Shown piece by piece: positions 55,703 to 61,404 of a DNA stretch of 64,000 nucleotides. Made by a program: the position numbers and the translations under genes. The number at the start of each line of letters is the position of its first letter. Positions within the stretch are counted from its first letter, which is position 1. The notes below the pieces were generated by a model. It did no database searches, had not been told where the DNA came from, and saw only the letters and a list, made by a program, of their open reading frames with translations. This stretch comes from Bifidobacterium actinocoloniiforme DSM 22766 (GTDB taxonomy: Bacteria > Actinomycetota > Actinomycetes > Actinomycetales > Bifidobacteriaceae), in contig NZ_CP011786.1 of the NCBI RefSeq assembly GCF_001263395.1, forward strand, positions 1,488,001 to 1,552,000, read 5' to 3'.

Positions 55703-57583
55703 TCATTGGAATTCCAGGGAATGCTCAAGCACGCCGCGCTCAGGCAGGGAGGGGATGATGCCCTCGTGGCCTAGGGAGAGGCCGGCGGCTTTGTTGGCTA
55801 TGCGGATGGCCTGGTCGAGCGGACGGCCGTAGAGCAAGTATGCGGCCAAGGCGCTGATGAAGGCGTCGCTGGCACCGGTGTCGGCCGCGGCTTTAACCGG
55901 AGTGGTTGGGAAATCCTGTTCGCCGTCGGCCGTGTAGAGGGTGCAGCCATCTTGGCCGGTGGTGACCAGGACCATGCCCGCCCCGTGGTTGATGAGGGCA
56001 TGGGCCTTGTCGGCGCGGCTGCCGGGACCGGGGCATAGGCGCTCCAACTCGGCGGAACCGGGCACCAGTAAGTCGCACTCGTGCAGCAGGCTGGAAGGCA
56101 GTTCGGCGGTATGGAAGGGTTTGATGATGGTCTTGGCGCCGTGGCGGTGGGCGAGGCGGCAGGCCTCTTCAAGAGCGGGGAAGGGGACCACGGTTTGCGC
56201 CAAGCAATACGAGGCCCGCTCGAACAGGTGCTCAGCGGCGCGCACGTCTTCCACGCTCATCAGCGCATTGGCACCGGCCGAGCGCGAACTCATGGTACGG
56301 CCCCGGTTGTCGACGAAAATATAGACTTTGCCGGTATCGCTACCGGGTTTGCGCCGGATGCCATCGGTGTCGACACCGCTCTCGGCCAGGTAGCGGTAAA
56401 TCTGGTCGGCTTGGCTGTCCGAGCCTACATTGGCGATGAGGGAGACGGGCTGACCCAGCTTGGCAACGCCGACCGCCTGGTTGGCCCCCTTGCCGCCGGG
56501 GACCGAGAAGGGGTCGTGGGAGTCCACCACGTTTCCGGCCTTGGGCAGGGTCGGCACGCCCAGATAGGTGTCGGTGTTGATGCTGCCCACCACCACGATC
56601 GAGCGCTGGGTCAGCTCGGCCGGCCCGGCCAGTGTGCGCTCGCTGCTTAAGTGGAAGGTCTGTGTGAAACCTGGCGCTTCCTTGCGGCCGCCTTCGATGG
56701 CGTTGACCATGCGGGTGCATAGGTAAGCGCCGAAATCCGCGTTGCGCATGGTGTAGGAGGATATCTCGCTGGAGCCCGGGTAGTGCAGCACTTCGCTGGT
56801 GTCGTTGCGCACGGTGAGGATGGAGAAGTCCTCGGGCACTCGGTAGTGCAGGCTGGAGGCGTATTGGAAGAGTTCCAGGGCGTGCTTGTAGTGGGAGGAG
56901 ACCACGCCGGTGACCTGTCGGGAGCTGATGCGCTCCATCAGGGAATCGCTTGGCTCGTGGATGACCATGTCCTCGCTGAACTCCATGTTGTGCTCGAACA
57001 GGCAGCGTTTGAAGCCGTTTAGGAAGCTTTCGGCGCGCCGGCCCGGGGTCAGCAGGCAGACCAGGTGCTTATGGCCGCGTTCGATGAGCTCCTGGGTCAG
57101 GCTGTATGACGCCTGCTCGTAGGGGAGCATGGTGAATTCGTCGTCGCCCAGGGGGCCGATGGTCAGCTCGGGAATATGGATTTCCGGGCGGCCCTTGCCT
57201 GGGAGCAAGCTGCCCGAGTCGACAGGCTCCCAAATCAGGCCGTCGACGCGCTGTGACAGTGCGGCGGCGATGTTGGCGCGTTCGCGCTCTCGGTCCTGGA
57301 AGCTGTTGAAGACCAGGGTGCCGTAGCCGTGGCTCTGGGCGGTCTGGACGATGCCGTCGATGGTGGTGTCGGTGGCGACGGAATCGCGCAGCAGGACGCC
57401 GATTCGCCAGCTGCGGCCGGGCTGGGCTGAGACTGAGGCGTAGGGGCGGTAGTGGTATTGCTTGACTAATTGGAGCACGCGCTCGCGGGTGGCCTCGGCG
57501 ATGCTGTCGTCTTTATGGTTGACGATTTTTGACACGGTTGACGTGGAGACGCCGGCAAGTTGCGCGATTTCTTTGATGTTCAT
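55703..57583 (-). CDS. LacI-family regulator fused to a PfkB/ribokinase domain
   Basis: This 626-residue protein joins two normally separate proteins. Residues 1-55 form a LacI DNA-binding domain (MNIKEIAQLAGVSTSTVSKI). About 58-320 form the periplasmic-binding-like effector domain. From 327 to the end is a complete PfkB sugar kinase with GSINTDTY, the substrate motif GGKGANQA (363-370) and the ATP/catalytic block DTGASDAF (568-575, presumed catalytic Asp573). The kinase motif lacks one residue of the common DTTGAGD form but keeps the aspartate. AAGGA about 13 bases before ATG 57583 supports the start, and no stop interrupts the joint. It is divergent from the nucleoside hydrolase genes and probably controls them while phosphorylating ribose or a nucleoside. 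Confidence 0.88.
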   Translation of the reverse strand: MNIKEIAQLAGVSTSTVSKIVNHKDDSIAEATRERVLQLVKQYHYRPYASVSAQPGRSWRIGVLLRDSVATDTTIDGIVQTAQSHGYGTLVFNSFQDRERERANIAAALSQRVDGLIWEPVDSGSLLPGKGRPEIHIPELTIGPLGDDEFTMLPYEQASYSLTQELIERGHKHLVCLLTPGRRAESFLNGFKRCLFEHNMEFSEDMVIHEPSDSLMERISSRQVTGVVSSHYKHALELFQYASSLHYRVPEDFSILTVRNDTSEVLHYPGSSEISSYTMRNADFGAYLCTRMVNAIEGGRKEAPGFTQTFHLSSERTLAGPAELTQRSIVVVGSINTDTYLGVPTLPKAGNVVDSHDPFSVPGGKGANQAVGVAKLGQPVSLIANVGSDSQADQIYRYLAESGVDTDGIRRKPGSDTGKVYIFVDNRGRTMSSRSAGANALMSVEDVRAAEHLFERASYCLAQTVVPFPALEEACRLAHRHGAKTIIKPFHTAELPSSLLHECDLLVPGSAELERLCPGPGSRADKAHALINHGAGMVLVTTGQDGCTLYTADGEQDFPTTPVKAAADTGASDAFISALAAYLLYGRPLDQAIRIANKAAGLSLGHEGIIPSLPERGVLEHSLEFQ

Positions 57584-57736: not shown

Positions 57737-57784
57737 TTGACAGCTTGTGGGGGCTCTGCTATCTTGTCGGGGGAAAAACGTTTC
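57737..57784 (+). promoter_or_regulatory. Promoter and operator of the first nucleoside hydrolase gene
   Basis: TTGACA (57737-57742) and TATCTT (57760-57765) are spaced by 17 bases. AAAAACGTTTC (57774-57784), a LacI-type CG-centred palindrome, lies just after them. It lies in the 274-base divergent gap with the regulator gene, so one site could control both directions. Confidence 0.75.
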
Positions 57785-57857
57785 GGAAAGTATTTTACTC
57801 CCATGCGTCTGTTGTGGGGACGGTCGGACTTCTTCGTGGAAAAGCAGGAATAGACCA

Positions 57858-58775
57858 ATGAATTCACGCCCAATCATCATCGACACCGACTCGGGGGTCG
57901 ACGCTGCCGCGGCCATCGCTCTCCTGAACGCGGAGCCCACTATCGACGTGCGGCTGGTGGCCAGCGTGGCGGGCCGCACCGCGGCGGACCAGGCGGCGGT
58001 CAGAGCCCTGAGGCTGATGACATTCCTGGGTGGGGCCACCCTGGTTGCGCAGGGCTCCAAGGGGCCGCTCGCCAGCTCGTCCGGTTTGCCGGAAGTAGGG
58101 CCCTGCCACAGCGACCTGGATGCGGCGGGTCTGCCCGAGCCGGACATGGGGCGCATGAGCCGGACCGGGGCGATTCTGAAGGAGCGGCGGATTCTGCTGG
58201 CCAGTGAACGGCCGGTCACGATGGTGACGCTGGGTCCGCTGACCAACCTGGCGCTGCTGCTGACCTCCTTCCCTGAAGTGCGCGAGCGCATCGAGCGCAT
58301 CGTGATGATGGCGGGCTCCACCGAACGGGGAGACGTGAGCCCGTATGGCGAGTTCAACGCGGTCTGTGATCCGCATGCGGCCGACGTGGTGCTGCGCTCG
58401 GGGCTGCCGCTGGACATGGTCGGTCTGAACGTGGGGCGCAAGCTGCTGCTGAACGAGGCGGATATGCCCGCGCTGGCGGCGACCGGGCGGACCGGCTCCA
58501 TGCTGGTGAGGCTGCTGAGGACCATGAGCGCCCGTTGCCAGGCCACGTTGCTGGCAGCGGCGCCTGCGGCCGCTATGTACCTGCTGGAACCCGGGCTGTT
58601 CACGACCCGTGGGGCCAGGGTCGACGTGGAGGTATCCAGCCCGCTGACCCGGGGCGCTACGGTCGTGGACTTCGAGGCTGAGCCCAACGCCACGGTGTGT
58701 GTGGACGCGGACAGCTGCGGATTCCGGGCGAGCTTCCTGCGGCGTATGGCCGCGCTCGACGGCGCGCGGAGGTAG
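57858..58775 (+). CDS. Nucleoside hydrolase homologue with degenerate active site
   Basis: This 305-residue member of the inosine-uridine nucleoside hydrolase family aligns across its length, with IIIDTDSGVD, LGPLTNLAL, EFNAVCDPHAA and ELFTTRGARVDVEV-like segments. Key positions differ. The family's DTDxGxDD calcium motif reads DTDSGVDAA, with the last aspartate replaced by Ala16. The HDPLA block reads AAPAA (Ala234, Ala235), losing the catalytic histidine and a calcium-binding aspartate. The EFN motif is intact. The protein is probably not an active hydrolase by the usual mechanism and may be a binding or regulatory paralogue of the next gene. AGGA precedes ATG 57858. Confidence 0.8.
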   Translation: MNSRPIIIDTDSGVDAAAAIALLNAEPTIDVRLVASVAGRTAADQAAVRALRLMTFLGGATLVAQGSKGPLASSSGLPEVGPCHSDLDAAGLPEPDMGRMSRTGAILKERRILLASERPVTMVTLGPLTNLALLLTSFPEVRERIERIVMMAGSTERGDVSPYGEFNAVCDPHAADVVLRSGLPLDMVGLNVGRKLLLNEADMPALAATGRTGSMLVRLLRTMSARCQATLLAAAPAAAMYLLEPGLFTTRGARVDVEVSSPLTRGATVVDFEAEPNATVCVDADSCGFRASFLRRMAALDGARR

Positions 58776-58790
58776 CGCGGAAATGCCAGG

Positions 58791-58819
58791 TTGCCAAATC
58801 TGATAAAACGTTTTATTGT
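58791..58819 (+). promoter_or_regulatory. Promoter with perfect palindromic operator for the second nucleoside hydrolase
   Basis: TTGCCA (58791-58796) and TATTGT (58814-58819) have a 17-base spacer. ATAAAACGTTTTAT (58803-58816) is a perfect 14-base palindrome centred on CG that overlaps the spacer and the -10. It shares AAAACGTTT with the site at 57775. Confidence 0.8.
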
Positions 58820-58924
58820 TATTCATGGATGCAATGCGGCCCTAAGCCTGTCTAGAGTTGAAGAAGACTCCACGGAGACTTCTTTTGCTCCGGGCGCCAT
58901 GGACACTGTTGAAAGGTGACGACA

Positions 58925-59881
58925 ATGAAGAAAATGATTCTCGATCTTGATACGGGCATCGACGACACCCTGGCCATTTCGTACGCCCTGGGCAGCCCTG
59001 AGGTGGAGCTGATTGGCATTACAAGCACGTACGGCAATGTGCTGCTTGAGCAGGGCATGCGCAACGATCTGGCGATCACCGACCTGCTGGGTCACCCGGA
59101 GGTCAAGGTCTATCCGGGCCTGCCCCACTCCTCCACGACCGACTCCTTCTCGGTGCTGCCGATTTCCGAGTTCATACATGGCAAGAACGGCATCGGCGAT
59201 GTGCAGATCCCCGATTCCACGCGCAAGCCCGAGACCCAGTCCGCTGTCGACTTCATCATCGACGCGGCCAAGACCTATGGCCAGGACCTGATCTATGTGC
59301 CCACCGGCCCTATGACCAATATCGCCGCGGCCCTCCGCAAGGCGCCCGAGATCAAGGACCAGATCGGCAAAATCGTGCTGATGGGCGGCGCCCTGACTGT
59401 ATGCGGCAACGTGTCCGCCTGGTCCGAGGCCAACATCTCCCAGGACCCCGACGCGGCTAACGAGCTCTTCCGCTCCGGCGCCCCGGTGACCATGATCGGC
59501 CTGGATGTGACCCTTCAGACGCTCCTGACCTATAAGGAGACCGCGCGCTGGCGCGACCTGGGCACCAAGGCCTCCGCCTTCCTGGCCGACATGACCGACT
59601 TCTACATCAAGGCTTACGAGACCACGTCTCCCCACCTGGGCGGATGCGGTCTGCATGACCCGCTGGCTGTGGCCGTGGCGGTCGATCCCACCCTGGTGAA
59701 GACCCTGCCGATCAACATGCAGGTCGATGTGGAAGGCCCCACCCGTGGCCGCACGATTGGCGACAACACGAGGCTGAACGACCCGCACAAGACCATGCAA
59801 GTGGCTGTCGAGGTGGACGTTCCCCGCTTCCTGAACGAATTCATGAGCCGCATCGGTGGGCTGGCCCAGCAGGCAGGCTGA
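58925..59881 (+). CDS. Nucleoside hydrolase (inosine-uridine preferring family)
   Basis: This 318-residue enzyme hydrolyses ribonucleosides to base and ribose. The calcium site DLDTGIDDT (Asp7, Asp9, Asp13, Asp14), PTGPMTNIA and the catalytic block GLHDPLAV (His244, Asp245) are intact. The EFN substrate motif appears as EAN. AAAGGTG precedes ATG 58925. It lies 149 bases after the degenerate paralogue and 110 bases before an MFS transporter. Base specificity cannot be read from the sequence. Confidence 0.92.
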   Translation: MKKMILDLDTGIDDTLAISYALGSPEVELIGITSTYGNVLLEQGMRNDLAITDLLGHPEVKVYPGLPHSSTTDSFSVLPISEFIHGKNGIGDVQIPDSTRKPETQSAVDFIIDAAKTYGQDLIYVPTGPMTNIAAALRKAPEIKDQIGKIVLMGGALTVCGNVSAWSEANISQDPDAANELFRSGAPVTMIGLDVTLQTLLTYKETARWRDLGTKASAFLADMTDFYIKAYETTSPHLGGCGLHDPLAVAVAVDPTLVKTLPINMQVDVEGPTRGRTIGDNTRLNDPHKTMQVAVEVDVPRFLNEFMSRIGGLAQQAG

Positions 59882-59991
59882 CCACACTTTGGCCGGTCCG
59901 TCCACAATAAGGCCCGGCGGGCGGCGCAATCCGACACGCCGCATACAATTTGAAATTGGCAACGTAGTTTGCACACAAGAAAAGGAACACT

Positions 59992-61404
59992 ATGACTGAG
60001 TCGTCAACTCGAGCGGCCGTCGATCCATTCGACGACCCGGAGACCAGCAACAAGATGGCCGTCCGGGCCCTCGTTTTCCTCCTTATCACCTTCATCCTGG
60101 GCACCTTGTGCCTGCAAGGATTCAACCTGGTCTTCCAGCAGGTCGGTAAGGATGTGGGCGCGGTCCAGCAGGCCTCGCTGATCACGGCCCTGCCGAGCAT
60201 CGTGCTGGGAATTGTCTGCTTCATCTACGGGTCGCTCGGCGACTTCGTCTCCCTCAAAAAGCTGGTGGTGACCGGCCTGGTCGTCCTCTTCATCGGCTCC
60301 ATCTTCGGTTTCGTGGCGAACTTCTTCTTCACCGCCAACCTGTGGACGGTCATCATCGCCCGCATCCTGCAGACCGCGGGTGAGCAGGTGGCTGGCTCGG
60401 TCTACCTGGTCGTCACGACCAAGTACCTCAAGCCTTCGCTCAAGGTGGTGGCCTTCGGTGTCTTCACCGCCGGCTACCAGGTCTCCGCGGCCATCGGCGT
60501 GTTCGCTGCCGGCTTGCTCAGCTCCATCTCCTGGCAGTACCTGTTCCTGATTCCGGCGATCACCATCTTCTTCCTTCCCGCCCTGCTCAAGTCCCTGCCG
60601 AACAAGAGCGGCTCCGGCGATAAGGTCGATTGGTTGGGCTTCACCATCTTCGGTCTGGCCACCGCATTCCTGACCTTGTTCTTCTCCTACACCAAGGTTT
60701 GGCTGCTTATCGTGGCCGCTGCGCTGTACGTCGTGTTCGGCGTATACATCACCAAGGCCAAGGACCCGTTCGTGACCCCCGAGTTCTTCAAGAACACCCG
60801 CTGGATCATGGCTATCTGCCTGATTCTGTTCTTCTACTTCAACAACTACTGCATGTCGCCCATCTTCAACGCGATCTGCCGTGACGTGTTCGGCATCACC
60901 AACTCGGCCACCGTCTCCATGCACATCGTCTGGGCCTTCCTGGTGGCGGCGTTCTTCGGCACCACGTCCGGCGCGATCGTGGACAAGATCGGCCGTCAGC
61001 CCACGCTGATCATCGCCGCCTGCCTGATGATCGTGGGCTGGGCCGGTTCCGCCTTCGTCATCTCGTCCGGCCTCATCCCGCTGACCCTGATGGCATGCGT
61101 GTTCTACGCGGGTGCAGGCCTCATGTACTCCCCGGTGGTCTCCACCGTGCTTGACACCCTGCCTAAGGAGCAGTCGGGCCGTGGCGTGGGCATGAACGAT
61201 CTGGTCATGAACGTGACCGGTTCAATCGGCATCGCCATCTTCGGTGGCCTGATGGCCGGCACCGGCCTGGGTGGCGGCTCCATCGCTGGAGGCGCCGGCC
61301 AGCAGGCGGTCTACGCCAACTTGCTGCTGATCGCGGCGGTCATCGCGGCCCTGGGCCTGGTCATCTACCTGGTCTTCCGCAAGAAGATCTACGCCGAGGA
61401 CTGA
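59992..61404 (+). CDS. MFS transporter, probable nucleoside or related uptake
   Basis: This 470-residue major facilitator protein has 12-14 predicted helices and the family loop YGSLGDFVSLKKLVVTGLV between helices 2 and 3 (GxLaDrxGrkxxl type). Another loop, GAIVDKIGRQPTLIIAA, marks the second half. The substrate is unknown; the neighbouring nucleoside hydrolases suggest nucleoside or nucleobase transport. AAAAGGAA precedes ATG 59992. A strong terminator follows. Confidence 0.82.
   Translation: MTESSTRAAVDPFDDPETSNKMAVRALVFLLITFILGTLCLQGFNLVFQQVGKDVGAVQQASLITALPSIVLGIVCFIYGSLGDFVSLKKLVVTGLVVLFIGSIFGFVANFFFTANLWTVIIARILQTAGEQVAGSVYLVVTTKYLKPSLKVVAFGVFTAGYQVSAAIGVFAAGLLSSISWQYLFLIPAITIFFLPALLKSLPNKSGSGDKVDWLGFTIFGLATAFLTLFFSYTKVWLLIVAAALYVVFGVYITKAKDPFVTPEFFKNTRWIMAICLILFFYFNNYCMSPIFNAICRDVFGITNSATVSMHIVWAFLVAAFFGTTSGAIVDKIGRQPTLIIAACLMIVGWAGSAFVISSGLIPLTLMACVFYAGAGLMYSPVVSTVLDTLPKEQSGRGVGMNDLVMNVTGSIGIAIFGGLMAGTGLGGGSIAGGAGQQAVYANLLLIAAVIAALGLVIYLVFRKKIYAED

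What the first reader, a model, noticed from the sequence alone, without database searches (positions are those of the whole stretch)
57858..58775. Nucleoside hydrolase paralogue that has lost calcium and catalytic residues
Compared with the intact neighbour, the calcium aspartate of the DD pair is Ala16 and the HD of HDPLA is AA (Ala234-Ala235), while the substrate EFN motif remains. This looks like a pseudoenzyme kept next to its active paralogue, under its own promoter and operator. It may bind nucleosides as a sensor or form hetero-oligomers.
Basis: partly seen in the sequence, partly recalled or inferred. Interest (0 to 1): 0.7.

Follow-up and report, generated by a model that had tools for sequence, protein, structure and literature searches.

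The report
Dead nucleoside hydrolase kept by selection
A gene that should encode a nucleoside-cutting enzyme in a bumblebee gut bifidobacterium has lost its metal site and catalytic residues, yet four related species keep it intact as the only predicted target of one repressor, so it probably binds or signals rather than cuts.

Summary
The ORF at 57858-58775 is a full-length nucleoside hydrolase (NH) fold with Ala for two calcium aspartates and the catalytic His: A16 (CfNH D15), A234-A235 (H241-D242). The window genome matches Bifidobacterium actinocoloniiforme DSM 22766 in length. Three congeners (one B. xylocopae) carry syntenic orthologues, and each lost the site differently: D10 in three, D15 in two, D242 in all four. 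The other 80 or so NHs inspected keep all three calcium aspartates. The four form one clade (100/100), sister to proteins with an intact calcium site. The protein is not a copy of its neighbour (29% identity, distant clade), and the neighbour is absent in two species. What is conserved is the divergent LacI-ribokinase fusion plus a promoter with a 25-bp operator that occurs once per genome at 0-1 mismatch. dN/dS is about 0.3, so selection maintains it, though relaxed. Most likely: a catalytically dead NH-fold protein without calcium, repressed by the fusion and acting as a ligand-binding partner or sensor. Loss of the standard reaction is well supported; the role is inferred. Known inactive NH-fold proteins (XopQ, Sde_0182) keep calcium, so this is a new variant of a known kind. 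A slowly decaying relic is the main rival.

The parts
57858..58775 (+). NH-fold pseudoenzyme (RihC-like, 305 aa)
   Evidence: PF01156 5e-59; AlphaFold pLDDT 90.4, Z 44 to RihA 3g5i; A16, A234, A235 at metal/catalytic sites
57903..57905 (+). codon 16 (Ala) at the CfNH D15 calcium-ligand position
   Evidence: alignments
58557..58562 (+). codons 234-235 (Ala-Ala) at the CfNH H241-D242 position (general acid, calcium ligand)
   Evidence: alignments
57737..57765 (+). predicted promoter TTGACA-17-TATCTT of the pseudoenzyme gene
   Evidence: conserved in the orthologous loci
57773..57797 (+). predicted operator GAAAAACGTTTCGGAAAGTATTTTA, an imperfect palindrome directly downstream of the -10
   Evidence: one site per bee-species genome at 0-1 mismatch; also before the ECF genes of sister species
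55703..57583 (-). LacI-ribokinase (PfkB) fusion regulator, 626 aa, divergent
   Evidence: PF00356 + PF13377 + PF00294; syntenic in all four species; ribose-site Glu143 equivalent is Val
58801..58818 (+). RbsR-type operator TGATAAAACGTTTTATTG of the following NH-MFS unit
   Evidence: consensus from PMC4746261
58925..59881 (+). intact nucleoside hydrolase (not the conserved partner)
   Evidence: PF01156 3e-91; close relative of solved 6BA1; absent from this locus in G007 and G018
59992..61404 (+). MFS transporter of the NH-MFS unit
   Evidence: PF07690

Best explanation
The gene encodes a catalytically dead nucleoside-hydrolase-fold protein that cannot hold the standard calcium ion. It descends from the hydrolase of a nucleoside/ribose-uptake locus (LacI-ribokinase repressor, ECF transporter, NH, MFS). 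In a bee-associated bifidobacterial lineage the ECF genes went, the NH lost its metal and base-activating residues, and the ribokinase domain lost one ribose-site residue, but repressor, operator and NH-fold protein stayed. Shown: residue losses, monophyly, synteny, conserved operator sequence, purifying selection. Inferred: the protein keeps the ribose-facing residues that do not hold metal (D9, D15, E165, N167), binds a ribose-containing ligand without cutting it, and acts as a ligand sink or accessory sensor in a small circuit with the LacI-ribokinase repressor that controls it.
For: Dead: A16/A234/A235; orthologues lost D10, D15, D242 in different combinations, none of 80 or so others did. 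Fold kept: pLDDT 90.4, Z 44. Selection: G000-G006 dN/dS 0.31 (bootstrap 0.23-0.38); 61% aa identity against 19% expected under drift; 1 of 300 neutral runs kept the frame open. Partner: LacI-ribokinase and this NH orthologue group (intact or dead) occur in the same 16 of 27 genomes of the genus; same divergent arrangement in all four species; operator occurs once per genome at 0-1 mismatch, at this promoter. Binding: metal and base-side sites 0 of 7 kept in all four, ribose-side non-metal sites 4 of 4 kept. Precedent for binding without catalysis: T. vivax NH Asp10Ala crystallised with inosine (entry titles).
Against: No ligand, interaction or expression data. D15/E165/N167 may be kept for folding. 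dN/dS is higher than for neighbours (0.31 against 0.09-0.20), so constraint is weaker. The active-site entrance loop is free to vary and modelled at pLDDT 63. In the wider family the fusion and the NH do not always co-occur. Operator function is predicted, not tested.
Confidence: 0.4

Rival explanations
1. Slowly decaying relic: the locus lost its uptake genes and enzyme function, and the protein is on its way out, with only weak residual constraint.
For: ECF genes gone from the locus; dN/dS 2-3 times that of neighbours; ribokinase-domain Glu143 to Val, so the partner's ribose site also changed; active-site loop freed.
Against: Intact frame, promoter, operator and ribosome site in four species with nearly saturated synonymous sites; dN/dS clearly below 1; long conserved blocks (241-260: 15 of 20 invariant); clade-specific C170 and C287 fixed in all four.
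Confidence: 0.25
2. Changed chemistry: an enzyme acting without calcium on another riboside, for instance through the newly fixed cysteines.
For: C170 (five residues after E165 of the EFN motif) and C287 are invariant in the four and absent from the sister clade; S. solfataricus CU-NH shows that the site can change metal (Na+ instead of Ca2+; PMC8910321).
Against: Metal and base positions vary freely among the four (D/G/A/A, A/D/N/D, A/G/G/S, A/P/C/Y), unlike a shared new active site.
Confidence: 0.15
3. Hetero-oligomer partner that tunes the active NH at 58925, as Arabidopsis NSH1 does for NSH2.
For: Adjacent genes in G000 and G006; the NSH1-NSH2 precedent (PMC8910321).
Against: NH and MFS absent from the locus in G007 and G018, where the pseudoenzyme persists; distant clades, 29% identity; E. 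coli RihA/B/C form only homo-oligomers.
Confidence: 0.07
4. Ordinary active hydrolase misjudged by alignment.
For: The family tolerates loss of H241 (Tyr, Cys, Trp, Gly seen).
Against: D15 and D242 are both Ala, and orthologues lack D10 as well; no substitutes in the alignment or nearby.
Confidence: 0.04

Closest known systems
RihC/RihA group I nucleoside hydrolases (8QND, 3G5I, 1YOE)
   Same: Fold (Z 43-44, 33-37% identity), EFN motif, first three Asp of DxDxxxDD
   Different: Calcium ligands D15 and D242, His241 and the His82 loop lost
XopQ and Sde_0182, inactive NH-fold proteins (PMC8910321)
   Same: NH fold without nucleosidase activity; proposed riboside/furanose binding
   Different: Both keep the calcium site; this protein does not. 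No added domain here
Arabidopsis NSH1-NSH2 hetero-oligomers (PMC8910321)
   Same: Idea of one NH modulating another
   Different: Both keep the NH fingerprint; here the presumed partner is not conserved
RbsR2/RbsR3 regulons of bifidobacteria (PMC4746261)
   Same: LacI-family control of nucleoside/ribose genes
   Different: This regulator is fused to a ribokinase domain, uses another operator, and has one predicted target in the four species

Membership tests
PF01156 IU_nuc_hydro fold family | Profile match and fold | tested here: met
   E 5e-59, 200.7 bits against cut-off 34.2; Z 44
Active group I nucleoside hydrolase | Calcium ligands D10, D15, D242 | tested here: not met
   D10 kept; D15 and D242 are Ala
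Active group I nucleoside hydrolase | His before the last calcium Asp (leaving-group activation) | tested here: not met
   A234; the intact sister clade has Tyr there
Active group I nucleoside hydrolase | Riboside hydrolysis | not testable with these tools
   needs an assay
RihC equivalog (NF008036) | Score above curated cut-off | tested here: not met
   235.8 bits against 382
XopQ-like inactive NH proteins | Inactive NH fold with calcium retained | tested here: not met
   calcium ligands lost; NF041355 19.4 bits against 500
LacI-ribokinase regulon | Shared operator sequence at the promoter | tested here: met
   operator at 57773-57797, same in orthologues and, weaker, before sister-clade ECF genes; binding itself not tested

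The most novel reading that the evidence does not exclude
A retired enzyme has become the dedicated ligand-binding partner of the repressor that once controlled it: a one-repressor, one-target circuit in which both the NH protein and the repressor's ribokinase domain have lost active-site residues and now sense a riboside together.
Probability: 0.2. Interest if true: 0.75.

Novelty: new variant of a known kind. Interest (0 to 1): 0.5.

Why it matters
Bacterial pseudoenzymes with a traceable active sister clade, a fixed genomic partner and a single-site operator are few. This one lets the step from enzyme to non-enzyme be placed on a tree and tested, and it would be the first NH-fold clade described without the calcium site (as far as the papers read here show). 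It also warns against annotating all PF01156 proteins as nucleoside-salvage enzymes.

Tried and rejected
Hetero-oligomer with the neighbour as the conserved function: made unlikely by synteny. The RbsR consensus TGATAAAACGTTTTATCA as this gene's operator: it lies before the neighbour NH instead. Codon model YN00 failed for most pairs (math errors), so NG86 is used; most other pairs are saturated. The genome-contig scan found one named orthologue, B. xylocopae. Literature searches for NH pseudoenzymes and LacI-ribokinase fusions gave nothing specific.

Full report
Identity of the window. The genome holding the window is one contig of 1,830,060 bases. That is the size published for Bifidobacterium actinocoloniiforme DSM 22766, from bumblebee gut (PMC4582582). 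Of the related genomes, G006 is B. xylocopae XV2 by its contig length. G007 and G018 are unnamed species of the same genus. I call the four 'bee species' from the two that I could name.

The observation. ORF 57858-58775 is a full-length PF01156 protein nearest to RihA/RihC. Aligned to solved enzymes and relatives, the last Asp of DxDxxxDD is A16, and the late His-Asp pair is A234-A235. In group I enzymes two Asp of the fingerprint and the late Asp hold the calcium ion, and the His before it activates the leaving group (PMC8910321). The CfNH residue numbers used here (D10, D15, D242, H241, N39, H82) are partly from my own knowledge of that enzyme. The GN residue at 40 and the His82 loop are gone too. 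The predicted fold is intact (pLDDT 90.4; Z 44.4, rmsd 1.4 over 292 residues to 3g5i).

It is a clade, not one odd gene. Orthologues in G006, G018 and G007 (54-61% identity) sit in the same place between dnaK-grpE-dnaJ and a mevalonate-kinase-like gene. Their D10/D15/D242 positions read G/D/G, A/N/G and A/D/S; the window protein reads D/A/A. The four form one clade (support 100/100), sister (100/99) to proteins that keep all three calcium Asp but have Tyr for His241. The other NH sequences inspected (69 plus 22, some overlapping) all keep the three Asp. The neighbour at 58925 is in a distant clade, so the pseudoenzyme is not its inactivated copy.

Selection. Between G000 and G006, NG86 gives dN 0.33, dS 1.08, ratio 0.31 (bootstrap 0.23-0.38), against 0.195 for the LacI-ribokinase fusion, 0.147 for DnaJ and 0.087 for the neighbouring NH (bootstrap medians). 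dS is high, so ratios are rough. Drift at that distance would leave about 19% amino-acid identity and on average 4.5 stop codons; observed are 61% and none. Of 129 sites invariant in the intact Tyr-type proteins, 62 are kept in all four. None of seven metal and base-side sites is kept; all four ribose-side, non-metal sites are (Fisher p 0.014 for the former against the rest; the placement of 82 and 223 is less sure because those parts align poorly). Two cysteines, C170 and C287, are fixed in the four and absent from the sister clade.

The locus. Divergent to the gene lies a 626-aa fusion of a LacI repressor and a ribokinase domain. In the genus, the fusion and this NH group occur in exactly the same 16 of 27 genomes. 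In the wider family this is not strict: three genomes have the fusion without the NH, and five have the NH without the fusion at the thresholds used. In sister species the fusion faces ECF-transporter genes, followed in several by the Tyr-type NH and an MFS gene. In the four bee species the ECF genes are gone from the locus; a genome search with the sister S component found none in G000, G006 and G007 and only a 38% match elsewhere in G018. The NH-MFS pair at 58925-61404 is present at this place only in G000 and G006.

Promoter and operator. TTGACA-17-TATCTT (57737-57765) is followed by a palindrome, consensus GAAAA-N3-TTTC-N-GAAA-N3-TTTTC, at 57773-57797. It is present in all four species and, weaker, before the sister ECF genes. 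Genome-wide it occurs once at 0-1 mismatch in each of the four genomes, at this promoter. So the only predicted target of the fusion is the dead hydrolase (and perhaps the fusion itself). The RbsR2/3-type site (PMC4746261) at 58801-58818 belongs to the neighbour.

The partner changed too. Ribose in E. coli ribokinase is held by Asn14, Asp16, Gly42, Lys43, Asn46, Glu143 and Asp255 (PMC9604405). The fusion keeps the equivalents of Asp16, GGK..N and Asp255, but the Glu143 position is Val in all four species; it is Glu or Asp in the other fusions. The position is by motif alignment, not by structure.

Reading. Loss of the standard hydrolase reaction is about 95% sure. Selection on the protein is well supported. 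What it does is inference: retained ribose-side residues, loss of everything that breaks the bond, and a private repressor point to a ligand-binding protein in a small circuit. A decaying relic is the main alternative, and the weaker constraint is its best argument. A new chemistry is possible. A role through the neighbour is unlikely to be the conserved one.

Known or new. Inactive NH-fold proteins are known (XopQ, Sde_0182), but both keep the calcium ion (PMC8910321). A clade without the calcium ligands was not found in the papers searched; absence in this library is weak evidence.

Noticed in passing
55703-57583 (-): LacI-ribokinase fusion whose ribose-site Glu143 equivalent is Val in all four bee species (Glu/Asp in the other fusions), although Asp255 is kept: the kinase domain may be non-standard as well.
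   Followed up: partly
58801-61404: NH-MFS unit present here only in G000 and G006, with its own RbsR-type operator and lower dS (0.5-0.7) than neighbouring genes (1.0-1.3): perhaps a later arrival.
   Followed up: partly
L007-L021, L033, L034, L036: Sister NHs in bifidobacteria and Atopobium have Tyr instead of His241 with an intact calcium site; leaving-group activation there is unexplained.
   Followed up: no
codons 170 and 287 of 57858-58775: Two cysteines fixed in the four pseudoenzymes and absent from the sister clade.
   Followed up: partly
G000:C1:201601-201618 (outside the window): Second RbsR-type operator of the genome; target not examined.
   Followed up: no
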